A DNA stretch of 16,098 nt, from contig JAKSAU010000833.1 of assembly GCA_022361535.1 (NCBI GenBank), forward strand, positions 1 through 16,098, in the 5' to 3' direction. Made by a program: the position numbers and the translations under genes. The notes under the pieces were generated by a model. It did not search any database. It saw only the letters and a list, made by a program, of their open reading frames with translations, and had not been told where the DNA came from. Positions 2-12,720 of the stretch are shown piece after piece (the stretch's first letter is position 1; each line of letters starts with the position of its first letter). This stretch comes from Desulfobacterales bacterium (GTDB lineage Bacteria > Desulfobacterota > Desulfobacteria > Desulfobacterales > Desulfobacteraceae).

Positions 2-2587
2 ATCAATGAAGAGCAAACTGATTTAAATCGCCTTATGCGCCAAGCAGAGTGGGGAGATCCGGTCGCCCAATTTGAAGTTGGAGAGCTTTATTATTGCGGT
101 TGCAAATATGACATTTCAAAAAATTATAAACAAGCTGCTGCTTGGTATCGAAAATCCGCCGAACAAGGTTATGCTGAAGCCCAAAACGATATTGGCTTTT
201 TATACGAGAAAGGCCTTGGAGTCGAAAAGGACTACTTTCAAGCTTCTGGTTGGTATCGAAAAGCTGCTCAAAAAGGATATGTTGTTGCCCAAAACAATAT
301 TGGCTTTTTATACGAGAAAGGCCTTGGAGTCGAAAAGGATTATCTTAAGGCGGCTTACTGGTATCGAAAAGCTGCACACCAAGGTAATAATTGGGCACAA
401 CAATCTCTCGGCTATTTGTATGAAAAGGGTTTAGGTGTTGAGCAAGATTATGCCCAGGCAACGCTCTGGTATAGAAAAACTGCAGAACAAATGTTTGGCA
501 ATTTATCAAACCAATTTGGTTGTTCAGAGATTTTAAATATTAGTGAAAAAACTAGACAAAGTTTTTTAGATGAATTTGATTTCTATTTAAATTCTACTAT
601 AAAAGCAGCGGAGCAGGGAGATACATTGGCGCAGAATGTTCTTGGCTTTTACTTTATTCTTCAAAAAGAACCTTATAATTTCATTCAAGCTTATAAATGG
701 ATTCGAAAAGCAGCAGAAAAAAACGACGCTTTTGCACAAATGTTTTTGGCAACGTTTTATCATTGTGGCGTAGGTGTCAGTATAGATTATTCACAAGCTG
801 CTTTCTGGTATAGAAAAGCAGCAGAAAATGAAATAGTTGATGCACAAACGGCACTAGCTCATTTTTATGAAAATGGTATAGGTGTAAAACAAAGCTATTC
901 AGATGCAGTTCATTGGTATTATAAAGCAGCTGACAATGATGAGCCTATGGCGCAAAAGCAACTTGGCTATATGTGGGAGAATGGGAAAGGCGTTAATAAA
1001 GATTATGTAATGGCTTCCTTTTGGTATGGAGAGGCAATTAAGAAAAAAAATCCAAAAGATGATTCTTATGACATTTATTTAAAAAATGCTGCGGAACAAG
1101 GCAGTCCCTATGGGCAAACAATTGTTGGTAAATTGTACCATGATGATGAAGATTATATTAATGCTGCTTTTTGGTTTAAAAAGGCTGCCGAGCAAGAAGT
1201 CGAAATCGCGGAGTTCATCCTTGGAACTTTATATGAAAATGGTCAAGGTGTTGAGCAGAACTATAAAAAAGCGGCTTATTGGTATAGAAAAGCAGCGAAC
1301 CAAGGTAATGTTTGGGCTCAAAATTCTCTTAGTCATTTGTATGAAAATGGTTTAGGTGTAGACCAAGATTACAAAGAGGCTCTTGTTTTGTATCGGAAAG
1401 CTGCCGCGAAAGGGGATGCAACCGCTCAGGCAAACCTTGCTGAAGCTATCGAATACGGTAAAGGCGATAGAATTGACTACAAGGAAGCCCAAGAGTGGTA
1501 CCAAAAAGCAGCCCTTCAAGGAATTCAACACGCACAAAATGCTTTAGAAAGATTGAAAAAAGGTAACTGGGGGACACTACAACTCCAACACCTGCTTGCA
1601 AAGAAAGGTTTTGATTCTGGGGTGATGGATGGCGTTTTAAAACCAGAAATATATGATGCCCTAAAAAAATATCGAGATGAGAATGGGCTACTTGAAGATC
1701 ATCGTTTTCTGACTGCCATGCATAATTATCTTTTCGAAAATAACAAAGATGAGCATAGTGAGCGAGGACCTAAAACTAGTTTAGTGCCCCAAATAAAAAT
1801 TGAAGAAAGATTCGAACCAACAAAATATTACGCTCTCTTAATCGGAGTATCAAATTACCCAAACCTTCCACCACATAGAAATTTAGAAACACCTATTAAT
1901 GATGTAAAAGATGTCGCCAGTCTTCTAAGCAATAAATACGGTTTTGAGGTTACTATTTTGGAGAATCCAGACCGAACTGCAATCATCGACAAATTGGATG
2001 AATTTACCAGAACATCATTTAATGAACAGAATTACAATTTATTGATCTACTATGCTGGACATGGATTTTATGATACTGACCTTTCGGAAGGTTATTGGTG
2101 GCCAAGAAATGCAAGCGATAAAAGTAAAAGTGAGTGGCTGTCCAATGGGACTCTTACAAACTTCATCCATGGAATGAAGGCACAACATGTTCTTGTTATT
2201 GCTGACACCTGCTTTTCTGGATCAATCTTGAGAGGCCCAAGTATTACTAAAAGAGATTCAACAATTAGTAATAAAACGTATTTAAAAAGTATGTACAATG
2301 GTCGTTCAAGATATGCATTAACATCAGGAACCATGCAACCCGTTTCGGATAACGGTGGCGCAAATGGAAACTCAGTGTTTGCGAGCGTATTTATAAAACA
2401 ATTAAAAGAAAACCAAGAGATAATTGAGATGGGGAGGCTATCACTAAAAATAATAGAAGTCGTAGAAGGTAAGACGTTTAAAACAACCAAGCAAAAACCA
2501 CGATATGGTATAATTCCACCACCTTTACCAATAGAGGAACAAGGAGATTTTGTATTCATACCAGAAGGATTAGATCCCAATGGGTAG
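2..2587 (+). CDS. Sel1-repeat / peptidoglycan-binding-like / caspase-like protein (5' end outside window)
   Basis: The frame is open back to the window edge, so the ATG at 35 need not be the start; residues here are numbered from that Met. Residues 1 to about 505 hold roughly twelve Sel1-type repeats (36-residue units such as AQNDIGFLYEKGLGV followed by WYRKAA), broken by one longer insert near 150-190. Residues about 508-550 (GTLQLQHLLAKKGFDSG, MDGVLKPEIYDALKKYR) resemble a peptidoglycan-binding-like domain. From about 605 there is a caspase/metacaspase-like (peptidase C14) domain: opening strand YYALLIGVSNYP, catalytic His676 in YYAGHG and Cys726 in IADTCFSGS. Both dyad residues are present, so it is probably an active cysteine protease, with the Sel1 array as sensor or scaffold. 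No signal peptide can be judged because the N-terminus is missing. A membrane protein gene follows at 39 bp. A stress or defence role is inference; the domain calls are firm. Confidence 0.88.
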   Translation: MNEEQTDLNRLMRQAEWGDPVAQFEVGELYYCGCKYDISKNYKQAAAWYRKSAEQGYAEAQNDIGFLYEKGLGVEKDYFQASGWYRKAAQKGYVVAQNNIGFLYEKGLGVEKDYLKAAYWYRKAAHQGNNWAQQSLGYLYEKGLGVEQDYAQATLWYRKTAEQMFGNLSNQFGCSEILNISEKTRQSFLDEFDFYLNSTIKAAEQGDTLAQNVLGFYFILQKEPYNFIQAYKWIRKAAEKNDAFAQMFLATFYHCGVGVSIDYSQAAFWYRKAAENEIVDAQTALAHFYENGIGVKQSYSDAVHWYYKAADNDEPMAQKQLGYMWENGKGVNKDYVMASFWYGEAIKKKNPKDDSYDIYLKNAAEQGSPYGQTIVGKLYHDDEDYINAAFWFKKAAEQEVEIAEFILGTLYENGQGVEQNYKKAAYWYRKAANQGNVWAQNSLSHLYENGLGVDQDYKEALVLYRKAAAKGDATAQANLAEAIEYGKGDRIDYKEAQEWYQKAALQGIQHAQNALERLKKGNWGTLQLQHLLAKKGFDSGVMDGVLKPEIYDALKKYRDENGLLEDHRFLTAMHNYLFENNKDEHSERGPKTSLVPQIKIEERFEPTKYYALLIGVSNYPNLPPHRNLETPINDVKDVASLLSNKYGFEVTILENPDRTAIIDKLDEFTRTSFNEQNYNLLIYYAGHGFYDTDLSEGYWWPRNASDKSKSEWLSNGTLTNFIHGMKAQHVLVIADTCFSGSILRGPSITKRDSTISNKTYLKSMYNGRSRYALTSGTMQPVSDNGGANGNSVFASVFIKQLKENQEIIEMGRLSLKIIEVVEGKTFKTTKQKPRYGIIPPPLPIEEQGDFVFIPEGLDPNG
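189..339 (+). repeat. Tandem Sel1 repeat units identical over 43 bp
   Basis: Bases 189-231 and 297-339 are identical (43 bp) with a period of 108 bp, exactly one 36-residue Sel1 unit. The preceding bases also match apart from one substitution. This indicates a recent unit duplication or gene conversion inside the Sel1 array. Confidence 0.9.
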
Positions 2588-3358: not shown

Positions 3359-4060
3359 TGTAAAAAAATGGTGGGATACATAATGAATTGGAAAAGGAAA
3401 ATATTTAGTCGTCCCCTCAACTTACATTACTTTTCATAATTCTATTGATATCTTAAAAATATTCAAAAATTATTAGCCTAACGTTGCTACTCAGCCACAC
3501 GATTTTTTGTGTAGGCTTCATTCGCTTTGATAGTGAGTAACATTAACTTTCTTTTGAAACAAGAAACTCCCAACCCTTTTCTGAATTTACGGTCACTGTA
3601 TTCAATATTGAACAAAATGAATTAAAATCAATAAGTTTAAACAGTTAAGTTGTTTTTTGCTTAAGAGTTCTCTCGCTATTTTCTCAGATACTTTTGAGAA
3701 ATGATCGGCAGTAGAAAGGATTACACCGCGCTTGCTTTAATGGATACCATGGAACATTTGGAGAACCTAAAATCCTGAGATCCTTTACTAAAGGGATGTT
3801 AAGGGGTGTGATCAAAAAGAAATTGTCTTATAATCCGCAGCAGTAACTTCATCATCAATCTGGACTTTTCTATATCCCTGTATATTGTATGTCTGTAAAT
3901 TAAGCATCTGAAATTGAATTAGAAATTCTTACAATTCTTGTCAGGGCAAAGAGCGATTTGTACAGATTATAAATATAAAATAGGCTGGTCACATGTGACC
4001 AAATTGCGGTGAAAATAGGTAAAATCCGGTAAAAACTATATATAAATAGGATACTTAAAA
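3359..4060. other. Long spacer with no convincing gene; native selenoprotein promoter at its right end
   Basis: About 700 bp, AT-rich, with no reading frame of convincing length or composition. A 25-residue frame at 3701-3778 (ATG to TGA, containing DYTALALMDTMEHLENLK) looks protein-like and may be a gene remnant, but it has no clear ribosome site. A nested inverted repeat lies at 3487-3539 (TACTCA ... TGAGTA enclosing ACAC/GTGT). The last 75 bp hold the palindrome and phased repeats listed separately. Confidence 0.6.
3986..4037 (+). promoter_or_regulatory. Native selenoprotein promoter/leader: palindrome plus three 10-bp-phased GGTAAAA-like repeats
   Basis: A perfect 16-bp palindrome, TGGTCACATGTGACCA, spans 3986-4001. 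It lies just after a GATTATAAATATAAAAT stretch that could hold a -10 element. It is followed by GGTGAAAAT, GGTAAAAT and GGTAAAAA with GGT at 4008, 4018 and 4028, an exact 10-bp period. The same order of elements, with different bases, precedes the functional copy at 10675-10725, so this is a conserved control region of this gene. It could be a repressor or activator operator, or a leader hairpin. Confidence 0.55.
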
Positions 4061-4171
4061 ATGACTGATAATACAGCTTCAAAGCCAACAATACCAATGC
4101 TGGAGATCTTTTCCGACTACGTCTGACCCTGGTGCTACTTCATTACCGGGAGTATTAAACGCGTCCTATGA
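4061..4171 (+). pseudogene. Severed 5' end of the native UPWC selenoprotein gene
   Basis: ATG at 4061 with AGGAT at 4047-4051 as ribosome site. The frame reads 21 codons ending LEIFSDYV, an in-frame TGA at 4124-4126 where the family has the first redox Cys, then PWCYFITGSI. After the 33-bp core it runs into element DNA (KRVL) and stops at the TGA of 4169-4171. It would give a 36-residue peptide if the first TGA is read as selenocysteine. The N-terminus (DNTASKPTIP) differs from that of the intact gene at 10736. I read it as the host gene's original start, cut off by integration. The promoter appears intact, so a short selenopeptide might still be made. Confidence 0.85.
4124..4156 (+). repeat. 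attL core (33 bp, starts at the Sec UGA codon)
   Basis: Identical to 10814-10846 over 33 bp. Homology extends left to about 4103 with only two mismatches (4114, 4123), and four further bases match after a mismatch at 4157. The core contains imperfect inverted integrase core-type arms, CCCTGGTGC (4127-4135) and ATTACCGGG (4142-4150), around a short central stretch, typical of tyrosine recombinase crossover sites. Confidence 0.9.
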
Positions 4172-5332
4172 TTTCAGTATGTTATGACGGGGTGTTACCA
4201 AATTGTTACCATTTAGGACTCTCTCAAAGGCTGATCCATCCTCTCTCGTTAAGTTCGGAATAAACCGATTATAACGATTCAAAGTTATTTCCACAGACGA
4301 ATGACCAAGGGTTTTTGAAACCCATGAAATTGATTCGCCAGCGCCGATATGCAGGGTTGCAAATGTATGCCGCATCTGTTTCGGTGGCCGGATTTTTAAA
4401 CCCACCAGGCGCAATTGATACTTAAAGGCATCACGGAAAGATGTCATAGTCCATTGACCTTGCCTGGGATTAAGGAACACCCACTTATTTAGCATCCCGG
4501 TTCTGACCTGCTGCCGTTTAAGGGCCTTGGTTACAACTGGTCGCAAGTGAATTTCCCTGTCGCTTGCTTCTGTTTTAGGGGGACCGTCACCGCCATAATA
4601 GTTCCTGGTTGCACAGATCAGAACTTGCTTATTGAAAAAGTCGACACTCTCCCAACGTAAAGCCATTAGTTCTCCAGGACGAACCCCGGTCCGGCTCCAA
4701 AATAAAACAAGATCATGCCATTCAGGGTCTTTTTCTTTCAAAGAATTCAGTAAGTGTTTCAGTTCATCAAAGGTGAACGGATCTATATGAGCTTTACTCT
4801 CTTTTACCTTTCGTATTTCTTCACATGGACTTTGAGTGATGAACCCTTGTTTGGCAGCATCTTTCAAAGGCATACAAAAGACTTTGATGTATTGGTTCAC
4901 GGTGGATGGCTTCAGGCCACGTTCAAGCAGTTTTTTACGGAAAACTTTTATTTCATGCTCCGTAATATCCGATAGGTGCCAATGCCCAAAATATGGTTTG
5001 ATGTAATTTTTGTAGGGGTAGGTATAATTGTCCTCAGTCCCTTTTCTTATCGCTAATTCTTCAACCCAGTTCGTACGAAATTCGGCATAGGTTATTTGAG
5101 ACTGGTCCTGAAGTGTGAACTGTTTAGCTTTTGAACCATGGGGAAAGAATCTCAGATAATTAAAAGTGCCCTGCCCAATGTGGTATTCAATTGCTTTACA
5201 CTTTTGCTTGACTCGTTTTAGATTTGTAGCAGTCTCTTTGCCTTCTCGTTCTACACAACGGACTCGACGGCCATCTGGTAAATAACATCTAAAATCAATA
5301 ACCAGAGTGTTTCCTCGTTTACCTACTCCCAT
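4166..5332 (-). CDS. int: Tyrosine recombinase / integrase with N-terminal DUF3596-type arm-binding domain
   Basis: 388 residues. Residues 1 to about 70 match the DUF3596-type arm-DNA-binding domain (LPDGRRVRCVE, then FNYLRFFP). Residues about 80-165 form the SAM-like core-binding domain. The catalytic domain follows: Arg218 (SRTGVRPGELMALRW), Lys253 region, Lys318-x-x-Arg321 (KQMRHTFATL), His344 (LGHSS) and nucleophile Tyr354 (LNRYNRF). Box II has Lys in place of the usual His, a known variant. The gene ends 9 bp inside the left repeat and reads toward it. It overlaps the upstream AlpA/Xis-like gene by 14 bp, so it is last in a leftward three-gene operon. It should catalyse recombination between the 33-bp cores. 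Confidence 0.95.
   Translation of the reverse strand: MGVGKRGNTLVIDFRCYLPDGRRVRCVEREGKETATNLKRVKQKCKAIEYHIGQGTFNYLRFFPHGSKAKQFTLQDQSQITYAEFRTNWVEELAIRKGTEDNYTYPYKNYIKPYFGHWHLSDITEHEIKVFRKKLLERGLKPSTVNQYIKVFCMPLKDAAKQGFITQSPCEEIRKVKESKAHIDPFTFDELKHLLNSLKEKDPEWHDLVLFWSRTGVRPGELMALRWESVDFFNKQVLICATRNYYGGDGPPKTEASDREIHLRPVVTKALKRQQVRTGMLNKWVFLNPRQGQWTMTSFRDAFKYQLRLVGLKIRPPKQMRHTFATLHIGAGESISWVSKTLGHSSVEITLNRYNRFIPNLTREDGSAFERVLNGNNLVTPRHNILKS
4193..4211. repeat. Paired TGTTACCA octamers near the left end (candidate integrase arm sites)
   Basis: TGTTACCA occurs at 4193-4200 and 4204-4211 (direct, 11-bp period, within the 3' end of int). The same octamer occurs twice, inverted, at 10676-10683 and 10685-10692 near the right end. 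Positions just inside both termini are what integrase arm-type sites should show. Confidence 0.4.
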
Positions 5333-5549
5333 CTTGTTCCTCCATCCATTGGATAAATTCTTTCACTTTGATGAGTGGTTTTCTTGCAACCTTTAGATAA
5401 TGAACGCCCCGGATTAATTTCCCGTTATTTATCCAATTATACAACGTCTGAGGCGCAAACCCGAAGGCCTTAGAAGCGTCATTAATATTTAATGTATATG
5501 CTTGGATAACAACCCCCCAATGGAATTTTATGCTCTTATAGCGGATCAA
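5319..5549 (-). CDS. AlpA/excisionase-like helix-turn-helix protein
   Basis: 76 residues. The central part (LNINDASKAFGFAPQTLYNW, then INNGKLIRGVHYLKVARKPLI) is a MerR/AlpA-type winged helix-turn-helix as in recombination directionality factors: residues for helix, turn, helix, then a basic wing. It lies between the regulator (14-bp overlap at 5536-5549) and the integrase (14-bp overlap at 5319-5332), so translation is probably coupled. The start given is a TTG overlapping the end of the upstream gene, with no clear ribosome site of its own; a slightly later start is possible. It likely directs excision or controls int expression. Confidence 0.75.
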   Translation of the reverse strand: MIRYKSIKFHWGVVIQAYTLNINDASKAFGFAPQTLYNWINNGKLIRGVHYLKVARKPLIKVKEFIQWMEEQDGSR

Positions 5550-5796
5550 CTTTTTTCATTCTGATTCTTTCTGCCCATTCAGATAAATTTTCACTCATAT
5601 TTCGTAATAAAACGCCAAACTGATAAACCCCAACTTTTTCACACATTTCAAGGTCTTTAGAGACTTCAGTAATGATATTGCTCACTAATTGGGCCTTAGA
5701 CAGATCAGCTTTTTTTGCAAGCCTATCTAACCGCTCGTCAAGTTCGCGTGAAGGTTTAAATTGAATTGGCGAGATTTGTTTTTTTTCTTCGGTCAT
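5536..5796 (-). CDS. Small ribbon-helix-helix-like regulator
   Basis: 86 residues. Residues 8-50 (ISPIQFKPSRELDERLDRLA, then KKADLSKAQLVSNIITEVSK) match the pattern of a CopG/Arc ribbon-helix-helix: a short beta strand (IQFKPS), a helix (ELDERLDRLAKKA), and a second helix after LSKAQ. A good ribosome site, AGAGGGG, precedes the ATG by about 7 bases. It is first in the leftward operon with the Xis-like gene and int. The promoter 50-80 bp upstream contains two GGGTATG heptads, the kind of direct repeat bound by such repressors, so autoregulation of the integration module is likely. Confidence 0.7.
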   Translation of the reverse strand: MTEEKKQISPIQFKPSRELDERLDRLAKKADLSKAQLVSNIITEVSKDLEMCEKVGVYQFGVLLRNMSENLSEWAERIRMKKVDPL

Positions 5797-5844
5797 TTTA
5801 TCCCCTCTAATTCTTTACATTAAGAAAAAACTATTTTTATGCGA

Positions 5845-5874
5845 ACTATAGACTGGGTATGCAGGGTATGTCAA
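5845..5874 (-). promoter_or_regulatory. Sigma-70-type promoter of the int operon with GGGTATG direct-repeat operator
   Basis: On the minus strand TTGACA (5869-5874) is followed after 18 bp by TATAGT (5845-5850). Between the two boxes, plus-strand heptads GGGTATG at 5855-5861 and 5864-5870 form a 9-bp-period direct repeat. Binding there would occlude polymerase. The first gene downstream encodes a ribbon-helix-helix-like protein. Confidence 0.6.
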
Positions 5875-5923
5875 GTAATTTATAGGTGATCTGGTACAAA
5901 CTTATATTGGGGTAGTTTACTGA

Positions 5924-5952
5924 TTGACATCAAGATAGGATCTTCATAAAAA
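5924..5952 (+). promoter_or_regulatory. Promoter of the AbiGi/DUF2971-like cargo gene
   Basis: TTGACA at 5924-5929, a 17-bp spacer, then TAAAAA at 5947-5952; the start codon lies 39 bp further on with ribosome site GAGGAG at 5981-5986. The -35 is consensus, the -10 weaker. Confidence 0.5.
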
Positions 5953-5991
5953 TATAGAAAATTTTTATGGATATTAAGAAGAGGAGAAAAT

Positions 5992-7068
5992 ATGAGTCTT
6001 CCACCGCCCGATCCAAATGGAAGAGGACCTTGGATTGAATATAAAATCGGTACGCCAGCTTTTCAGCTTCGTCCATTTGAAAAACCTGATATGTCACCTT
6101 ATTTAGTGCATATGACTGCCAAAAATTCGATACTTGGCATACTGAATTCCGGTGAGGATGGGAACGGTATAATTAAATCCAATAGACCATTAGATGCAAA
6201 AAGTTGGTATGACGAATCGGTTGTTTGTTTTACTGAATCCCCAATTTTCGCAATTGATGCCTTCAGATACATCCGTTTTAAACGTTGGCAAATGGATCTG
6301 CGTTATGGAGTAGGCTTCTCAAAAGAGCGTCTCATAGAGAAGGGGGTAAGACCTGCCTTGTATTTTGACTCCGCTTTGGTTGGTAAAATTAGACAACTGA
6401 GCGGACTGACAACTGGAGATCCGCAAAATCCACTTCAAGAAATATCTAAAGAAATATCCGATCAAATTATGCCGCTCATGAATTCTCTTATGGAAAATGA
6501 GACCAAACAGGGTTTCATCTGGGAAAGGGAGTGGCGTTATCCAGGCAAAGACGGTTTTCAATTCGATTATGATGATATTGAAATAATTTGTTGCCCGAAT
6601 GAAGAACGAGAAAAAATAGTGAGTATTCTTGGTGACTCAGCCAATAAAATAAAATTTGTTGAATCCTGGTCTCAATATAATGAAGTGAAAGAATTTCTTG
6701 ATTCAAGGTCTCGTGGTTGGGAGACTGAAATTCAGGTTGATGGTTACAAAATAGATCAACTGAAAACCTTAAAAAACGAATATCAACAAGAGCTTAATAA
6801 AGCTGAAGCGTATAAAGCTTACACAGAAAAATTGCAAAGTGAAATGGACGGAATAAAAAGATATTCTGAGGAACTGAAAAACAGAGTTTCTGAAATTGAG
6901 TCTGGGATAAAGGCAAAGCAAAAAGCTGAACCGAACGAAAAGTGCTGTAATTGCGGAAGAGTTTTTGATGGAAAAACAACCATGGTTACATGGAATGATG
7001 AAGAAACCTTTAAGGACGCTCTTTGTGGCGAATGTTACGCAGAGTATCGATATATGTTAGGATTATAA
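5992..7068 (+). CDS. AbiGi/DUF2971-like protein with coiled coil and C-terminal zinc ribbon; probable defence cargo
   Basis: 358 residues. Residues about 37-66 (YLVHMTAKNSILGILNSG), about 75 (VVCFTESP) and about 177-186 (FIWEREWRYPG) follow the pattern of AbiGi/DUF2971 and related folds of ADP-ribosyltransferase type, in which an N-terminal His, a central FTE and a late acidic EREWR form the pocket. Residues about 245-310 are a charged heptad-like coiled coil. The end is a zinc ribbon, Cys318-x2-Cys321 and Cys345-x2-Cys348. Strong ribosome site and own promoter; transcribed away from the int operon. Family members are abortive-infection or unknown proteins, so a phage-defence role is plausible. 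The zinc-ribbon tail on this core is not one I recognise. Confidence 0.6.
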   Translation: MSLPPPDPNGRGPWIEYKIGTPAFQLRPFEKPDMSPYLVHMTAKNSILGILNSGEDGNGIIKSNRPLDAKSWYDESVVCFTESPIFAIDAFRYIRFKRWQMDLRYGVGFSKERLIEKGVRPALYFDSALVGKIRQLSGLTTGDPQNPLQEISKEISDQIMPLMNSLMENETKQGFIWEREWRYPGKDGFQFDYDDIEIICCPNEEREKIVSILGDSANKIKFVESWSQYNEVKEFLDSRSRGWETEIQVDGYKIDQLKTLKNEYQQELNKAEAYKAYTEKLQSEMDGIKRYSEELKNRVSEIESGIKAKQKAEPNEKCCNCGRVFDGKTTMVTWNDEETFKDALCGECYAEYRYMLGL

Positions 7069-7129
7069 AAAATACACATAGTGTACAGGAATAGACAATT
7101 ACAATAAGCAAAATTTCAGGAAAAAAGTA

Positions 7130-7352
7130 GAAAGGCTGAAACCCGCGCCAGTCGTGGTCAGTTCCGTGTATTCGCATACTTACCAAGGGGGCCGGTCAAA
7201 TGGTCCGGTCCGGTGCGGCCGCTCGGGGGCGAGCCGCGGGCGCTCCGGTCCTCCCACATGCCCGGCCCCTGGGCTAAAGCCACCGACTACACCGAGGCTC
7301 CTATCGTCGAATTCTGGCACAACACTTCAAGCTGTGACGGTGTGCCTTTTTT
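7130..7352 (+). ncRNA. GC-rich, strongly structured candidate non-coding RNA ending in a terminator
   Basis: Composition changes sharply to GC-rich at about 7143-7300. An 8-bp perfect long-range stem, GGGGCCGG (7188-7195) with CCGGCCCC (7262-7269), encloses further hairpins including GCTCG-GGGG-CGAGC (around 7220-7233). The segment ends in an intrinsic terminator (7316-7352). The only reading frames here have aberrant residue content (runs of Pro, Gly, Arg, Ser) and no ribosome sites. I match it to no known RNA family, and the 5' end is uncertain. It sits between two cargo genes. Alternative: a decayed foreign gene or a 3' UTR. Confidence 0.4.
7316..7352 (+). terminator. Intrinsic terminator
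   Basis: GGCACA (7316-7321) pairs with TGTGCC (7341-7346), with an inner CAC/GTG stem, and is followed at once by six T (7347-7352). It can end a transcript from the cargo gene at 5992 or an RNA from the GC-rich segment. Confidence 0.65.
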
Positions 7353-7895
7353 GTTAACAAAGAGGGAATTTAACTTACGGCCAGAAGGGAGAGCTGGAAC
7401 ACCGACCGGGATCGACTTCGACGAACGAACGTTAACGCAACACTTTAAAGACGGTTCCGGGTCATTCTCTACCAAACGCATTGGTTCATCCGAGTAGAGT
7501 GTTATCAGCGCAAAGCTGTTTTTAGTCAGGCCGGTGATGCTTTTAAAACAATCTATACCCAGGGCGCTTACTTTCCAGGTGGACGAGTTGATTAGTTAAA
7601 TTGCCATTTGAGTAGTCTGTATAACCGCCTCAGACTCTCAGTATAATCAAGTCGACCAGTTAAAAAAAATCATTCTGGTGCAGACTGATAATAGGAGCAG
7701 GGCAGACCGCATTGGCTTCGACCAAAACACGACTGCCTAAAGCAGAATGAGGGCATAGCCCAGGCAGGGGGTATAATTATTTATAAACCATATTTCATAA
7801 TGATCCCTGTGTAATATATGCTATACAGAATAAATATAATAAAATTGACACATATAAGCACCATTATCCAAAAAGAATAAGGGCCATTACTCAAC
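7353..7895. other. Non-coding stretch before the nuclease-like gene, with a compact two-stem hairpin
   Basis: No convincing gene. A frame open to 7497 (ending DGSGSFSTKRIGSSE) has no recognisable start or family. At 7733-7767 CTGCCT and AGGCAG enclose GGGC-ATA-GCCC (7751-7761), a stacked double hairpin that could be a replication or RNA signal. An AT-rich block (7776-7850) with TATAAT at 7835-7840 probably holds the promoter of the next gene. Confidence 0.45.
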
Positions 7896-8753
7896 ATGGA
7901 TGACGTATTGATAAGAAAAATCAAAAAAGATATTCAAAAATCTGGATTCGCATCAGAACTAAATGTTAGAAAAATTCTCTATGATCACGGTTGGTCCTTA
8001 TCTGGGGGGTCTGCGTATTTCGATAAAGATGAGAACAAATCGCGGGAGATTGATATTATTTCCCACAGATCAAGTTTTATTAAGCACAAAAGAAACTATC
8101 TGGTAAGAAATTTTTGGTACTTATTTGTTGAAGTAAAAAAAACCGAGAAACCATGGATTGTTTTTAAAAAATCTGTAGAAGAGCCTTTTGATTCCTGTGC
8201 TTGGAATAACCTAATAAACTCTATAAACTTACCATGCAAACCAAGGTTTTTGTCTAAGTCACTTCGTAAGCATTCTTTATTGAAAGCCAATGGGTGGGAA
8301 GGTACGGGAATACATGAGGCATTTAAAAATCCAAGCCAACCATCTCAATGGTATAAAGCTTTTTTAAGCGCCTGCAAAGCTGCGGAAGCATATAAGGAAC
8401 AATACGGCAGTGATGGTAATAAAGTATCCGACGATATTATCGAAGATTCATCAGAAATTTCTTTTCACCAACCCATCGTAGTACTAGACGGAGTTTTAGC
8501 CTCAGCAGAACTAGACGAGAACAATCAAATATCCATTGAAGAGGTGAAGTCGGCAGCTTTTAAGTTTCAATATAAAACTCTAAATTATAAACAAAGAAGC
8601 TACAGAGTAGATTTAGTAACTGTTGATGGATTAATCGATTATATTGAACTAATAAAAAAGAGGCAGAGTAATTTTACTAAAGAATTATTGAATCAAATAA
8701 ACAAGGAATTTGATCTTTCACTAAATTCAAATGCTATGCTCTTCTCAGATTGA
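7896..8753 (+). CDS. PD-(D/E)xK nuclease-like protein; probable defence cargo
   Basis: 285 residues. The N-terminal 90 residues carry a restriction-endonuclease-like core: Glu21 in a first helix (FASELNVRKILYDHGW), Asp53 in REIDII, and Glu79-x-Lys81 in YLFVEVKKTEKPWIVF. The spacing of helix, D and ExK fits the PD-(D/E)xK superfamily. The C-terminal 120 residues (IVVLDGVLASAELDE, then KQRSYRVDLVTVDGLIDYIE) look like an appended alpha/beta domain. There is no methylase or partner gene, so it is not a standard restriction system. ATG at 7896 with AAGGG at 7879-7883, a somewhat long spacing. The gene converges on the leftward small genes at 8829-9332. Nuclease fold is likely; target unknown. Confidence 0.6.
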   Translation: MDDVLIRKIKKDIQKSGFASELNVRKILYDHGWSLSGGSAYFDKDENKSREIDIISHRSSFIKHKRNYLVRNFWYLFVEVKKTEKPWIVFKKSVEEPFDSCAWNNLINSINLPCKPRFLSKSLRKHSLLKANGWEGTGIHEAFKNPSQPSQWYKAFLSACKAAEAYKEQYGSDGNKVSDDIIEDSSEISFHQPIVVLDGVLASAELDENNQISIEEVKSAAFKFQYKTLNYKQRSYRVDLVTVDGLIDYIELIKKRQSNFTKELLNQINKEFDLSLNSNAMLFSD

Positions 8754-8783
8754 ATTATAAGATGATTGAACTCACTCGGTAGC

Positions 8784-8815
8784 CATTACCGGGGATATTC
8801 CTACTCCCGGTAATG
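8784..8815. repeat. Perfect 10-bp inverted repeat sharing 15 bp with the att core
   Basis: CATTACCGGG (8784-8793) and CCCGGTAATG (8806-8815) are perfect inverted arms around 12 bp, with partial extension outward. The reverse complement of 8802-8816 is TCATTACCGGGAGTA, identical to core positions 4140-4154 and 10830-10844. It sits between convergent genes but has no T tract, so it is not a typical terminator. It may be a secondary integrase site, the double-strand origin nicked by Rep, or a relic of an earlier att site. Confidence 0.7.
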
Positions 8816-8828
8816 ACTACTGTGTATT

Positions 8829-9056
8829 TCAAGCCTTTTTACCTGGGCCTGGTTTCGGATCAAAATGATATTCTGGAAGATTTGGGCACATCGTCCGGAG
8901 GTAATCGCAAATGATATACCGAACCACTTCTGCAGTCGAAGCCTTGTTCTGGGCTACAAGGATACGGATCAGATCAAAATAAGGCTTAGGAAGAGAAGCT
9001 GTTACTTGAGTGAATAAATCACCTTTAGGTTTAAAATCCAGAGTGGTCTTTTTCAT
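8829..9056 (-). CDS. Small hypothetical, possibly ribbon-helix-helix, protein of the rep operon
   Basis: 75 residues; the family is not recognised. The middle (VTASLPKPYFDLIRILVAQN, then KASTAEVVRYIICDYLR) fits strand-helix-helix as in CopG-type regulators: TQVTASLP strand, PYFDLIRILVAQN helix, STAEVVRYIICDYL helix. Start ATG at 9056 with AAAGGGA upstream; 12 bp after the preceding gene (9069-9332). Being last in the leftward group after the replication gene suggests copy-number control or partition, as CopG does in small rolling-circle plasmids. That role is inference. Confidence 0.55.
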   Translation of the reverse strand: MKKTTLDFKPKGDLFTQVTASLPKPYFDLIRILVAQNKASTAEVVRYIICDYLRTMCPNLPEYHFDPKPGPGKKA

Positions 9057-9068
9057 AGTGGTCCCTTT

Positions 9069-9332
9069 CTATTTTAGGTCATCAAGAAAAGCTTTTATAG
9101 TGTTTGCGTTGGAGTGGATTTCATCGCAGGTAGCTTCAAGAAGATCCGCAAAAGAATGATTGTGAGGATCATATAGTCTGCCTTCTTCCGGTAGTTCCCT
9201 CATGATGTATGCAAAAAATCCAACACGTTCAGCTAAAGCCTGTATTTCATCCACGTAATCACCGACAATACTGTTAAGTAGTTTGGGATCAGATCCATTT
9301 GCTTTTGTTTGTTTTTTGGTAGATACTTTCAT
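9069..9332 (-). CDS. Small hypothetical protein between rep and the CopG-like gene
   Basis: 87 residues with a Lys/Thr-rich N-terminus (KVSTKKQTKANG), then two predicted helices (LNSIVGDYVDEIQALAERVG; DLLEATCDEIHSNANTIKAF). No known motif. A strong GGAGGAG ribosome site 9 bases before the ATG and tight spacing to the next gene support that it is real. It starts 78 bp after the end of the replication gene, on the same strand. The function is unknown; acidic helical proteins of this size in such elements are often copy-control or mobilisation accessories. Confidence 0.6.
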   Translation of the reverse strand: MKVSTKKQTKANGSDPKLLNSIVGDYVDEIQALAERVGFFAYIMRELPEEGRLYDPHNHSFADLLEATCDEIHSNANTIKAFLDDLK

Positions 9333-9368
9333 AGTACTAACTCCTCCTCGATAGGGGTTGGTATTAGA

Positions 9369-9400
9369 GCTGGCAGCGGAACGGCCATTCTGCTGTCAGC
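9369..9400. promoter_or_regulatory. 9-bp hairpin between rep and the small genes
   Basis: GCTGGCAGC (9369-9377) pairs fully (one G-U) with GCTGTCAGC (9392-9400) around a 14-base loop. On the plus strand it is followed by a T-rich tail; on the coding (minus) strand it is not. It could be an mRNA processing site, a single-strand origin, or a weak plus-strand terminator. Confidence 0.4.
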
Positions 9401-9409
9401 TTGTTTCTT

Positions 9410-10549
9410 TTAAGCGGCCTTATCAGCCTGGTATGCTTGAATCAGTTTGTCCAACTCATCCATAAATTCGAACTCATTCATGTGTTCAGTGATCGCCAGC
9501 ACTTCTCCTTTGATTTCCAGGGCATTGATATCAGTCCACTGGTCATTGGTGATGAATGCGTAATGATTGCCGGTGCTGTTTTCTTTCAAAAGTTCGTCAT
9601 CGGTCTTGTTAACAATTCCCAGGAACTTTGAAAGGCCGGGGGTGGGGAAAAACTGTTTTTTGCCTTTCATGGTTTGTGCGTATTCCCAAAATTTAGCCGA
9701 ATAAAGGCGGGAATGGGGATCACCCTGACGGATAGCTTCGAGCATACCAAAAGGTGTTATATTGCCGTTTTTTCCGAATTTAACGATACCTTTTGTTGCT
9801 TCTTTGGCTAAGCTCCAGTTTTCACCTTCAACCGTAGTGATATATTTTGAGATACGATCAAAGCCATCATCAGAGTTGATTTGATCAATTCTTACGGATC
9901 TGGAACAAAAAGCATCAAAATTATCTATATCTCCACCGGCCTTCAAAAAGGCAACCGCCCAGGCCACGGATAAAGCATGACGCCATTTTTTGAGTTGGGA
10001 GGTATTTGCACGGATCATGAAATGAAGATCATGCCGGTGAGGGTGCCAACCATTTCTTTGACCAAAAGTATTTTCCCTGCCTGTGTATGCCCCTACAGAA
10101 CACATTTCTTCCATGATAGTTCGATAAACCGAATATAGACCCCTTTGGGGCTGTTGTTTCATGATCCGCATAGCCCTGTCTTGAACGTGGAGGACTTCGG
10201 ATAAAGGCTGTCTGATCTTGTGAGGCGTTGTCCAGGTGATCATTGCAACTGAGTTTTGGCAATCTCGGTTTCTCCAAATATCGCAGGACTCCTGGACCTG
10301 CTGGCAGCGGCGTTCAGAAATGATGGAAGCACAAACTTGACACGACCATACAGAACCGCACGTCTGCAAATCACCGTAGTGGGCTTTTTTTGCTCCCTCT
10401 TTTTTTCGTAGTGACACACTGGTTGATCGTTTTGATTTTAGCCGATGGCAATTTTCAACACGATCAGGGAAAGAGTTTTTGGGACGGTTTCGAAGGTGGA
10501 TAAGTTGGGAAACTCTTTGATTTTTAAAACGATTGATGATAGTGTTCAT
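9410..10549 (-). CDS. rep: Rolling-circle (HUH) replication initiator protein
   Basis: 379 residues. An N-terminal zinc-type cluster, Cys64, Cys70, Cys73 in CGSVWSCQVCASIISERR, is followed by the metal-binding HUH motif His169-Pro-His171-Arg-His173 (GWHPHRHDLHFMI) and the candidate nicking Tyr236 with Lys235 (DRISKYITT). This order matches the Rep proteins of small plasmids (Rep_1-like). It should nick a double-strand origin on the circular element. The start is well supported by AAGGAGTT at 10559-10566. The leader carries a strong attenuator-like hairpin. No origin could be fixed; the inverted repeat at 8784-8815 and the structured region at 7733-7767 are candidates. Confidence 0.88.
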   Translation of the reverse strand: MNTIINRFKNQRVSQLIHLRNRPKNSFPDRVENCHRLKSKRSTSVSLRKKEGAKKAHYGDLQTCGSVWSCQVCASIISERRCQQVQESCDIWRNRDCQNSVAMITWTTPHKIRQPLSEVLHVQDRAMRIMKQQPQRGLYSVYRTIMEEMCSVGAYTGRENTFGQRNGWHPHRHDLHFMIRANTSQLKKWRHALSVAWAVAFLKAGGDIDNFDAFCSRSVRIDQINSDDGFDRISKYITTVEGENWSLAKEATKGIVKFGKNGNITPFGMLEAIRQGDPHSRLYSAKFWEYAQTMKGKKQFFPTPGLSKFLGIVNKTDDELLKENSTGNHYAFITNDQWTDINALEIKGEVLAITEHMNEFEFMDELDKLIQAYQADKAA

Positions 10550-10586
10550 ATAAATCGGAACTCCTTACACGGGGAACTGACGAATC

Positions 10587-10625
10587 AAAAAAGGGAGCTG
10601 GCCGCCAAACCGCGTTCCCTTTTTT
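10587..10625. terminator. Bidirectional terminator / rep leader attenuator
   Basis: AAAAAAGGGA (10587-10596) and TCCCTTTTTT (10616-10625) pair perfectly, giving a stem with a T tract on both strands. For leftward transcripts it lies about 20 bp before the rep ribosome site, a position typical of transcriptional attenuation in rolling-circle plasmids. For rightward transcripts it insulates the selenoprotein gene, whose promoter must then lie at 10626-10735. Confidence 0.65.
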
Positions 10626-10674
10626 TATTTTTGTACTGTTCATCTTTTTCCCTGTGATTATGTTAGTAAAATGG

Positions 10675-10725
10675 TTGGTAACATTGTTACCAATCCGGTA
10701 AAAATTCAGGTAAAAACTGGTAAAT
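10675..10725 (+). promoter_or_regulatory. Element-supplied promoter/leader of the selenoprotein gene: palindrome plus phased repeats
   Basis: TTGGTAACATTGTTACCAA (10675-10693) has 8-bp arms around ATT. Three GGTAAA-type repeats follow, with GGT at 10697, 10709 and 10719. Upstream, GATTAT and TAAAAT (10667-10672) align with the native promoter at 3976-3985. The bases differ from the native palindrome but the symmetry is kept. The arms also contain two TGTTACCA octamers shared with the left end. Confidence 0.55.
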
Positions 10726-10735
10726 TGGAGTTAAA

Positions 10736-11407
10736 ATGGACAATTTAGAAAACACTGAAAATAAAGGCTCAGAACCCCGTAAACACGTACTTGAGATCTT
10801 TTCAGACTACGTTTGACCCTGGTGCTACTTCATTACCGGGAGTATTGAACGATTAGAAAAAAAATATAATGTTGCCGTCCGTTGGCGGGCCTTCCCTCTT
10901 CATCCCGATACCCCTGAACAAGGTCTGAGTATGGATGACCTGTTCAAAAAAAAGGGATTGCCCATTGATGTGGATAAAGCCATGACAGAACTCCAGGCGG
11001 TGGCTGCACGTTTTGATCTGGAAATGGGTAAGCGGACAATGACCTATAACAGCCGAATGGCTCAGGAGCTTGGGCTGTGGGCGGAATCCTGCGGCAAAGG
11101 CCACGAATTTCATAATGAGGCATTCAGGGCTTATTTTGCCCGAGGGGACAATATTGCCGACCATTCCGTTTTATTGGATATGGCAGCAACTGTGGGGCTC
11201 GATAGGCAAGATGCCAAAAAAGTCCTTGAAGAGAGAACTTTTGCACAAGCTGTAGACAAGGATTGGGAGTTGTCCAGGGCCAAAGGAGTGACAGCGGCAC
11301 CAACCTTTTTCATGGGCCTTGACCGGCTGGTTGGCGCTCAACCCTACGAAGTTCTGGAGAAAATGGTGCAAAAATATACAACACCTTCCAATACCGGGCA
11401 AAACTAG
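10736..11407 (+). CDS. DsbA-family (FrnE-like) thiol oxidoreductase, selenoprotein with U-P-W-C active site
   Basis: Reading from ATG 10736 (ribosome site TTGGAG at 10725-10730) gives 223 residues with one in-frame TGA at codon 27 (10814-10816). It falls exactly where FrnE/DsbA relatives have the first Cys of CPWC: FSDYV-Sec27-PWC30-YFITGSIERL. The rest is a full thioredoxin-fold protein with helical insert (AFPLHPDTPEQG, AAPTFFMGLDRLVGAQPYEV), including cis-Pro189. No signal peptide, so cytoplasmic. If TGA meant stop, the next ATG (10931) would give a protein without its active site. The first 26 codons lie inside the mobile element; the remainder is host DNA. Likely a redox or detoxification enzyme; substrate unknown. 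Confidence 0.88.
10814..10846 (+). promoter_or_regulatory. Sec UGA codon with candidate SECIS; also attR core
   Basis: The segment is identical to 4124-4156. After UGA, UACUUC (10826-10831) can pair with GGAGUA (10839-10844), with either a U-G pair or a bulged U, leaving a loop about 15 bases from the UGA, the spacing expected of bacterial SECIS hairpins. An alternative hairpin pairs CCC-U-GGU (10817-10823) with ACCGGG (10835-10840), also with a bulged U, but its loop is nearer to the UGA than usual. Which forms is not settled by eye. Confidence 0.6.
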
Positions 11408-11613: not shown

Positions 11614-12720
11614 TTGAAGATTGAATCTTTCGATTTAGACCTTAGCTCAACAAGAACCTATACGGAAAGTTATTCCAGTGAATTCACACGGGAACTTTCA
11701 TTTGTGGACCTTATGGACACCCGATTGGGTGAGACTGATAACCGGACGCGCCAGATAACAGAGTCCCATTCTATTTCATCTGATGATTCCGGTGCCCAGG
11801 AGGTGTCCTTTAATGTATCAAGACGGTTCGAACGAACAAGTGAGTGGTTTTATTCCGTATCGGTTGAGGATCAGGAGTTGGTATCTCTTTCTGACCGGTT
11901 CTTGTTTGAACTGGAAAAAATGCGGCAAATCGCCTCAAAGCTTATGGAAGCGCTTGAGTCAATGATGGTTGACGGCTGTCAGTGTTATCTGGATAAGTTT
12001 AACCAGGTGTACGCCATGTCACTTGAAAGAACCGATACCACTCAATACTTGTCCTGGAACTATAGCCAGACCCATACAGAAACCTACGAAGAATCCGAAT
12101 CAACCCATGTTTTTGCTGACGGTATTGTCAGGACAGCAGACAACCGGGAAATTGATTTTAATTTCCAATTTCAGATGGATCGTACGTTTCTCAGGGAGGA
12201 TGCGTTTACCTGGACAGAGTCTGGAGTGGCCCTCATAGATCCATTGATTATCCGGACAGATATGACAGCACCGCTTTTATCCGGCACAGAATTTTCCTTT
12301 GATCTTGATCTTGACGGGGATTTGGAAGATATGCCGGCACCCGGTCCCGGCATGGGGTTCCTTGCTCTTGACCTAAATGAGGACGGGATTATCAATGACG
12401 GATCTGAATTGTTCGGCCCTTCTACCGGCAGTGGGTTTGGTGAGTTAGCTGAATATGATCTGGATGGAAACAACTGGATAGATGAAAATGATGCGGTATT
12501 TGACCAACTTACCCTATGGCAAAGTGCTGAATCCGGTGGCATGACACTGACCCGGCTCCAGGATACCGGCATTGGGGCTATTTATCTTGCCGGTGTGGAA
12601 TCTTCCTTTGATCTGACAGATAATGAAAATGATACTTGGGCAAGAATCTCTAAAACATCTGTGGCACTCACGGAAGATGGCGATGTGCTTCCTGTTCAGG
12701 AATTGAACTACAACGTATAA
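11614..12720 (+). CDS. EF-hand/dockerin-type calcium-binding repeat protein
   Basis: 368 residues from a TTG start at 11614, supported by AAAGGGGGCG at 11601-11610. There is no signal peptide. The N-terminal half is Ser/Thr/Glu-rich with two similar stretches (STRTYTESYSSEF, SQTHTETYEESES) and a helical segment near 95-120. The second half carries two EF-hand-like loops, from Asp253 (DLNEDGIINDGSELFG) and Asp282 (DLDGNNWIDENDAVFDQLTLW). This is the signature of C-terminal segments of VCBS/RTX-associated calcium-binding proteins. Its role is unknown; such proteins often occur alone near secreted repeat proteins. A single-gene unit, with an inverted repeat after its stop. Confidence 0.7.
   Translation: MKIESFDLDLSSTRTYTESYSSEFTRELSFVDLMDTRLGETDNRTRQITESHSISSDDSGAQEVSFNVSRRFERTSEWFYSVSVEDQELVSLSDRFLFELEKMRQIASKLMEALESMMVDGCQCYLDKFNQVYAMSLERTDTTQYLSWNYSQTHTETYEESESTHVFADGIVRTADNREIDFNFQFQMDRTFLREDAFTWTESGVALIDPLIIRTDMTAPLLSGTEFSFDLDLDGDLEDMPAPGPGMGFLALDLNEDGIINDGSELFGPSTGSGFGELAEYDLDGNNWIDENDAVFDQLTLWQSAESGGMTLTRLQDTGIGAIYLAGVESSFDLTDNENDTWARISKTSVALTEDGDVLPVQELNYNV

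What the first reader, a model, noticed from the sequence alone, without database searches (positions are those of the whole stretch)
4124..10846. An integrative element that uses a selenocysteine codon and SECIS region as its attachment site
The perfect 33-bp direct repeat flanking the element begins exactly at the in-frame UGA of a selenoprotein gene and spans the U-P-W-C codons and the downstream SECIS window. Known integrase targets are mainly tRNA/tmRNA genes, and conserved protein-coding ends in some cases. I know of no described element that targets a selenocysteine-insertion signal. The logic fits: the UGA, redox motif and SECIS are constrained at both RNA and protein level, so the site is conserved across hosts, and the core also has inverted integrase-type arms (CCCTGGTGC / ATTACCGGG).
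Basis: partly seen in the sequence, partly recalled or inferred. Interest (0 to 1): 0.95.

Follow-up and report, generated by a model that had tools for sequence, protein, structure and literature searches.

The report
Mobile elements targeting a selenocysteine codon
A small DNA element that likely moves by its own integrase sits exactly at the selenocysteine codon of a bacterial redox gene and carries a replacement start for that gene, and inserts of three dissimilar kinds sit at the same spot in this and six other genomes, so the DNA around a selenocysteine codon likely serves as a landing site much as tRNA genes do.

Summary
Observation confirmed. A perfect 33-bp repeat (4124-4156, 10814-10846) starts at the in-frame UGA of a DsbA-like UPWC selenoprotein gene and brackets a 6.7-kb element with a tyrosine integrase, a likely excisionase and a plasmid-type Rep. 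The left copy ends an orphaned gene 5' end. The right copy lies in a complete gene whose promoter region and first 26 codons are on the element side.

The same arrangement recurs. Six of 147 site-bearing genomes (389 searched) have inserts at this UGA, of three kinds: the window's own (G749, G774), one with a dissimilar integrase (G720, G639, G468), and a 3.4-kb insert (G651). G657 holds the uninterrupted gene that G720's two copies divide between them. Window versus G774 (87-90% identity upstream, chance level downstream) shows that the replacement 5' end travels with the element.

The repeat is the best-conserved 33-nt stretch of the gene region compared, also in a set not chosen by DNA pattern, and holds most of a covarying hairpin, probably the SECIS. 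Gene-restoring integration is known (SXT in prfC); I found no description of this target in the library searched. Integrase activity, excision and selenoprotein synthesis are inferred.

The parts
4061..4171 (+). orphaned native 5' end of the selenoprotein gene (left copy), ending in a stop just past the core
   Evidence: translation; that it is the native side is inferred from G720, whose left copy matches the intact gene of G657 upstream of the UGA
3986..4001 (.). operator-like palindrome TGGTCACATGTGACCA, 138 nt upstream of the UGA (native side)
4124..4156 (+). 33-bp direct repeat, left copy (attL core): UGA codon, PWC codons and most of the predicted SECIS
4166..5332 (-). tyrosine recombinase (integrase)
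   Evidence: PF00589 2.7e-19, PF12167 arm-binding domain 6.3e-08; phrog_1 integrase 8.5e-61
5319..5549 (-). HTH protein overlapping int, probable excisionase; 78% match (58 aa) beside the integrase of G749
   Evidence: PF12728; excisionase PHROGs 9.7e-05
5536..5796 (-). ribbon-helix-helix-like small protein, weak match
   Evidence: PF01402 E 0.0098, below cut-off; CopG-like phrog E 8e-4
5992..7068 (+). cargo, function unclear (weak AbiGi and LmuB matches)
7896..8753 (+). cargo protein without a family match
8829..9056 (-). small protein, 80% identical in the G774 insert
9069..9332 (-). small ORF next to rep
9410..10549 (-). replication protein similar to 'protein rep' of small plasmids; 89% identical in G774, next to the same gene
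   Evidence: phrog_11698 (unknown function) 1.9e-50
10676..10692 (.). operator-like palindrome TGGTAACATTGTTACCA, 138 nt upstream of the UGA (element side)
10658..10813 (+). element-borne cap: promoter region (left limit approximate) and first 26 codons supplied to the host gene
   Evidence: 87-90% identity to G774 upstream of the UGA, chance level downstream
10736..11407 (+). complete DsbA-like UPWC selenoprotein gene (223 aa, U27)
   Evidence: PF01323 8.4e-20 on the ORF after the UGA (10931-11407)
10814..10846 (+). 33-bp direct repeat, right copy (attR core)
10830..10848 (+). covarying hairpin, predicted SECIS (+16 to +34 from the U of UGA)
   Evidence: six pairs, 99% of pair cells standard, 26 double changes in 153 sequences
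11614..12720 (+). host gene downstream of the selenoprotein gene; same neighbour in G749 and in the intact locus of G748

Best explanation
The 6.7-kb stretch is a plasmid-like integrative element whose tyrosine integrase likely recombines a 33-bp core, identical in its two copies here, that starts at the selenocysteine UGA of a DsbA-like gene. Integration would leave the host's own gene 5' end stranded at the left junction and join the element-borne promoter region, start codon and first 26 codons to the host's remaining codons, so the selenoprotein is predicted to be made from the hybrid gene. The core is well suited as a target because it is held nearly constant at the DNA level, likely both by the U-P-W-C active site and by the hairpin needed to read UGA as selenocysteine. 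Inserts of at least three kinds (window/G749/G774; G720/G639/G468; G651) sit at it. Shown: layout, repeat, integrase family, the cap shared by two related inserts whose host genes differ, an uninterrupted counterpart for G720, and recurrence. Inferred: integrase activity, excision, replication by Rep, expression of the hybrid gene.
For: Repeat and two gene 5' ends. Integrase, excisionase-like gene and Rep. G749: fragment followed by an integrase 59% identical, full gene on another contig with the same host neighbour as the window. G774: Rep 89% identical directly upstream of the full gene; 87% and 90% identity to the window upstream of the UGA, 70% and 60% past the core, which is what this aligner gives for shuffled DNA (mean 62%, maximum 71-72%). 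G720 against uninterrupted G657: left copy 84% and 77/77 upstream, 53-64% past the core; right copy 65-68% upstream, 94% and 91% past the core. G639: an 88.5% identical integrase beside the full gene. G468: a 42-aa remnant of that integrase beside the full gene and a left fragment 4.6 kb away. G651: a 3.4-kb insert with a recombinase of a third kind. The three integrases are not significantly alike by BLASTP (best E 0.025). The stretch 0-33 has the highest summed information of any 33-nt window in 153 intact genes (-45 to +300) and again in 31 genes collected by protein search and located by protein motif (-45 to +255).
Against: No empty site was found for the window's own host, which is not held as a genome. 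In G749 the two junctions are on different contigs; in G774 and G639 only the right junction was read, and no integrase of the window's family was found in G774. The G651 recombinase ORF is short (221 aa, profile matched to 124 of 172). In G749 and G651 the perfect match around the UGA is only 26 and 20 nt and has ended by +11, so the core is not perfect in every case. Integrase relatives at 55% and below were found away from the UPWC core, so the integrase branch is not bound to this target. No activity was measured.
Confidence: 0.9

Rival explanations
1. The elements target a conserved protein active-site codon stretch, and the selenocysteine signal is incidental: any strongly conserved coding segment would do.
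For: Integration into protein-coding genes is well known (PMC12884075 passages). The U-P-W-C residues alone fix most bases of the core's first half.
Against: Third codon positions in the core carry 1.46 bits against 0.37 elsewhere (most of positions up to +17 were restricted by the search pattern) and 1.4 against 0.5 in a set not chosen by DNA pattern, so the DNA is constrained beyond the protein. The repeat covers 17 of the 19 nt of the covarying hairpin. None of four query integrases matched in the 80 loci L001-L080, fetched with the cysteine form of the query, but these come largely from other taxa.
Confidence: 0.35
2. Integration and excision act as a switch: the native and element-borne 5' ends carry different operators, so the element changes when the selenoprotein is made.
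For: Both 5' ends in the window carry a palindrome at -138 with different half-sites. Eight other upstream regions have one at -129 to -147 (10 of 177 with the window's two); two of the eight are the G749 and G774 caps.
Against: The two palindromes are variants of one pattern at the same distance, which fits kept regulation better than changed regulation. 167 of 177 upstream regions, G720, G639 and G468 among them, lack it. No expression data.
Confidence: 0.12
3. A duplication of the gene's 5' end with unrelated genes lying between, no site-specific recombination involved.
For: The 5' ends are similar over 118 nt including non-coding DNA (77%).
Against: Similarity stops just past the core at the left junction; the same breakpoint recurs with other inserts in other genomes; window and G774 share the cap but not the rest of the gene at the DNA level; G720 against G657 shows exchange at the core.
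Confidence: 0.03
4. Assembly chimaera.
For: Many of the genomes read are fragmented; G466 has scaffold gaps right at its split site.
Against: The window holds both junctions in one contig and its integrase is listed in 2 contigs. In G720, G468 and G651 both junctions lie in one contig.
Confidence: 0.02

Closest known systems
SXT/R391 integrative and conjugative elements at prfC
   Same: tyrosine recombinase; integration in the 5' end of a conserved protein gene; attP and attB nearly identical (PMC2791158 passages); that SXT supplies a new 5' end and promoter is recalled, not read here
   Different: target is a selenoprotein gene at its UGA/SECIS; the element is 6.7 kb with a plasmid-type Rep, and no conjugation gene was recognised
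Genomic islands that reconstitute the gene they enter (tRNA, tmRNA, protein-coding genes)
   Same: reconstitution of the target gene after insertion is described as frequent (PMC12884075 passages); the target DNA encodes a conserved RNA fold
   Different: the RNA fold is a recoding signal inside a coding sequence, and the 5' part with the start codon is replaced
Small rolling-circle plasmids with 'protein rep' (Acinetobacter, Psychrobacter, Comamonas; the rolling-circle class is recalled)
   Same: Rep 28-32% identical over 83-96% of its length in the 20 records listed
   Different: here Rep sits in an integrated element with integrase and excisionase-like genes
DsbA-like UxxC selenoproteins
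   Same: PF01323 and UxxC motif, a listed prokaryotic selenoprotein family (PMC13188914 passages)
   Different: here the gene serves as an integration site; 'mobile genetic' and 'integrase' have 0 occurrences in that review

Membership tests
tyrosine-integrase integrative element (genomic island) | tyrosine recombinase gene at one end | tested here: met
   PF00589 2.7e-19; R218, R321, H322, H344 and Y354 invariant in 15 aligned sequences; that these are catalytic residues is recalled
tyrosine-integrase integrative element (genomic island) | direct repeats at both ends inside the target | tested here: met
tyrosine-integrase integrative element (genomic island) | uninterrupted target in a close relative | tested here: inconclusive
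   met for G720 against G657; for the window only more distant intact loci such as G748
tyrosine-integrase integrative element (genomic island) | excision and circular form | not testable with these tools
   needs reads or PCR
SXT/R391 ICE | integration at prfC and conjugation genes | tested here: not met
   target is the UPWC gene; no conjugation family among the element proteins scanned
rolling-circle plasmid (integrated) | Rep related to plasmid replication proteins | tested here: met
   129 plasmid records match, first listed 31% over 93%
rolling-circle plasmid (integrated) | Rep catalytic motifs and double-strand origin | not tested
   not examined
bacterial SECIS (model in PMC13188914, Fig. 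2 legend) | apical loop 3-9 nt, G in its first two positions, 4-16 bp stem, 16-37 nt from UGA | tested here: met
   window copy: loop CGGGA, stem of 6 pairs with one mismatch, 20 nt from UGA (positions)
bacterial SECIS (model in PMC13188914, Fig. 2 legend) | minimum free energy of -7.5 kcal/mol or less | tested here: inconclusive
   the 48-nt stretch folds at -9.4 but into the 5' hairpin; a 30-nt piece folds at -4.1, also otherwise; the covarying hairpin is in the lowest-energy fold of only 25 of 153 sequences, the 5' one in 109
DsbA-like UxxC selenoprotein | DSBA domain and in-frame UGA conserved among homologues | tested here: met
   PF01323 8.4e-20; UPWC motif in 29 of the 30 loci L081-L110
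DsbA-like UxxC selenoprotein | selenocysteine machinery in the same genome | not testable with these tools
   the window's genome is not held

The most novel reading that the evidence does not exclude
The DNA that programs selenocysteine insertion is an integration hot spot in its own right: dissimilar integrases have converged on the UGA/SECIS segment because the dyad that folds as a recoding hairpin in RNA is read as a recombination core in DNA, as happens with tRNA genes, and each element brings its own 5' end so that the selenoprotein survives.
Probability: 0.5. Interest if true: 0.9.

Novelty: new variant of a known kind. Interest (0 to 1): 0.82.

Why it matters
Integration sites tend to lie where sequence stays constant across hosts, and tRNA genes are the textbook case. 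A recoding signal inside a protein gene, used by at least three kinds of insert, would widen that rule to translational recoding signals and give a simple way to look for more: scan other selenoprotein, frameshift and pyrrolysine signals for split copies. It would also mean that selenoprotein genes in anaerobes can exchange their promoter and first codons through mobile DNA, and that gene finders that stop at UGA can miss both the gene and the insertion.

Tried and rejected
Rejected: tRNA or tmRNA target (none found); known Rfam element in the window (one match only, of a lncRNA family at E 1.5, taken as chance); exact core in viral contigs (0); relatives of the integrase in viral contigs with the single sequence (none of 9 stretches). 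With an alignment, 63 loci were found, the closest (L158/L159, 55%) without the UPWC core.

Broken UPWC genes that are not evidence for an element: G420 has an internal deletion; G304, G310 and one of two copies in G771 have frameshifts or stops further on; G500 is cut at the same place but is followed by genes that look like hydrogenase subunits, and no second half was found. G466 has a 5' fragment and a full gene at scaffold gaps, while its relative G459 has the gene order intact; suggestive, not counted. G752 runs off its contig 48 nt past the UGA.

Counts. Distinct exact-pattern sites in loci L081 onward, window left out: 177, of which 163 complete, 5 at a contig or locus end, 9 broken. 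These come, so not only from the 389 genomes. The match list was cut, and at least one listed site (G004) was not read, so six of 147 is a lower bound. G774 and G639 count among the complete sites, because their right-hand gene is whole. G468's left fragment differs from the pattern by one base and was found by protein search. Integrase genes near the site were sought with 32 query integrases, so inserts with other recombinases would be missed.

The identities come from an aligner that allows gaps freely: shuffled DNA gives 62% on average and up to 71-72%, so values below about 72% there mean no detectable similarity. The conservation score used genes collected by a DNA pattern; one search repeats it without that.

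One search used a pattern with one base too many, so its 0 of 389 means nothing; searches used the corrected pattern (31 of 96 and 147 of 389). Searches were read in the wrong frame; replace them.

Gene labels such as hydrogenase, proline dehydrogenase, DoxX, acyltransferase and M48 for genes of fetched loci are my reading of the ORFs and come from no call.
Full report
What is there. Positions 4124-4156 and 10814-10846 hold the same 33 bp, starting with the TGA of an in-frame UGA codon. The right copy lies in a 224-codon frame (10736-11407, stop included) that reads as a 223-aa DsbA-like protein with selenocysteine at residue 27 in a UPWC motif; the ORF after the UGA matches PF01323 at 8.4e-20. 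The left copy is the end of a second 5' end of the same gene (4061-4171) that stops just past the core. Between them lie, from the left: integrase, excisionase-like HTH gene, a small ribbon-helix-helix-like gene, two cargo genes of unclear function, two small ORFs and a replication protein.

Is the gene real and usually whole? In a draw from the phylum of Desulfofustis glycolicus, 92 of 297 genomes match the protein (weak matches included), and 29 of the 30 loci L081-L110 show the UPWC motif. In one order, 147 of 389 genomes hold the exact site pattern. Of 177 distinct sites in the loci read, 163 have a complete gene, 5 run off a contig or locus end and 9 are broken. The window itself is from no held genome; the nearest relative with a name in the list, for the ORF after the UGA, is a Desulfobacter sp. 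MAG at 72%.

Other inserts at the same place. Six genomes among the 147 have one; the match list was cut, so this is a lower bound. G749: fragment, then an integrase 59% identical to the window's and a match to its excisionase-like gene, 78% over 58 aa; the full gene is on another contig, with the same downstream neighbour as in the window (60.6%). G774: the window's Rep at 89% directly upstream of the full gene, with different cargo that matches PADLOC candidate defence proteins PDC-M48A and PDC-M48B. G720: a 9.5-kb insert with a different tyrosine recombinase, next to the right junction. G639: an 88.5% identical recombinase at the same place beside the full gene. G468: a 4.6-kb stretch with a 42-aa piece of that recombinase and a left fragment. 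G651: a 3.4-kb insert with a recombinase ORF of yet another kind. BLASTP finds no significant similarity between the three integrases (best E 0.025). Of 15 pairs of left junctions compared on the element side, only window with G749 and G720 with G468 score above all of 100 shuffles.

Direct evidence for insertion and for the travelling cap. G657 has the uninterrupted gene beside a gene (by my reading proline dehydrogenase) 93% identical to the one beside G720's left copy. G720's left copy agrees with G657 at 77 of 77 aligned positions before the UGA and at 53% and 64% past the core; its right copy agrees at 68% before the UGA and at 94% and 91% past the core. The aligner gives about 62% for shuffled DNA, so the contrast is between near identity and none. 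The two G720 copies are thus the two parts of a G657-like gene, parted at the core. Conversely, window and G774 right copies agree at 87% and 90% upstream of the UGA but at 70% and 60%, chance level, past the core: the upstream part goes with the element, the downstream part with the host.

What the cap does. It holds a start codon, 26 codons and a promoter region with a palindrome 138 nt before the UGA. The native 5' end in the window has a variant of the same palindrome at the same distance. Ten of 177 upstream regions have one: these two, the G749 and G774 caps, and six in loci where no insert was recognised. The caps of G720, G639 and G468 lack it. The likely result for the window's kind is that the gene keeps both its reading frame and its kind of regulation; for the other kinds only the reading frame is supported.

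Why this site. In 153 distinct intact genes, the 33-nt stretch that begins at the UGA has the highest summed information of the region -45 to +300. Those genes were collected with a pattern that restricts most of positions -9 to +17. In 31 distinct genes collected by protein search and located by a protein motif, the same stretch again ranks first (-45 to +255), with third codon positions at 1.4 bits in the core against 0.5 elsewhere. A hairpin at +16 to +34 has 99% standard pairs over six pairs and 26 double changes. A seven-pair version keeps 97% of pairs, against 22-58% and at most 5 double changes when one side is slid by 1-3 nt. It meets the loop, stem and spacing rules of the published bacterial SECIS model but not clearly its energy rule.

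Comparison with what is known. SXT/R391 elements enter the 5' end of prfC through a tyrosine recombinase (PMC2791158 passages), and islands often reconstitute the gene they enter (PMC12884075 passages). The present elements appear to work like these. Not found in print: searches of the held library for selenoprotein, selenocysteine, SECIS or DsbA together with integration terms gave no paper on the subject, judged by listings and by passages of PMC11222575; most subscription papers are not held. A 2026 review of prokaryotic selenoproteins has 0 occurrences of 'mobile genetic' and 'integrase' (PMC13188914).

Verdict. The finding is real and stronger than first stated, since the site is used again and again; its mechanism is a new variant of gene-restoring integration. 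What is shown is sequence layout and comparison; recombination, excision and selenoprotein synthesis remain to be tested.

Noticed in passing
window 35-2587: Large protein with 108-bp repeats (TPR/Sel1-like by my reading) and a C-terminal caspase-like domain (NCBIfam caspase 8.5e-19, below its cut-off; PADLOC caspase 3.4e-11), upstream of the insertion; a possible defence or signalling gene.
   Followed up: partly
L314 8594-10110 (G774): Cargo of the related insert matches PADLOC candidate defence pair PDC-M48A (1.2e-62) and PDC-M48B (2.6e-30); cargo differs from the window's although Rep and site are shared.
   Followed up: partly
L256 and L257 (G466): Selenoprotein gene split between two places of a gapped scaffold, with about 240 bp of duplicated 5' end; gene order intact in G459. 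May be a further insertion or an assembly effect.
   Followed up: partly
L363 (G500): Gene cut at the same position past the core but followed by hydrogenase-like genes, without an insert or a second half; possibly a scar.
   Followed up: partly
L158 8001-9161: Integrase 55% identical with a similar overlapping HTH gene, in a viral contig beside a radC-like gene and without the UPWC core; its target was not worked out.
   Followed up: no
window 3986-4001 and 10676-10692: Palindrome TGGTNACA-TGTNACCA followed by GGTAAA repeats, shared with a few intact homologues; the regulator is unknown.
   Followed up: partly
G484, G430, G579, G549: Two or three UPWC selenoprotein genes per genome on different contigs; the ones read were complete.
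   Followed up: no
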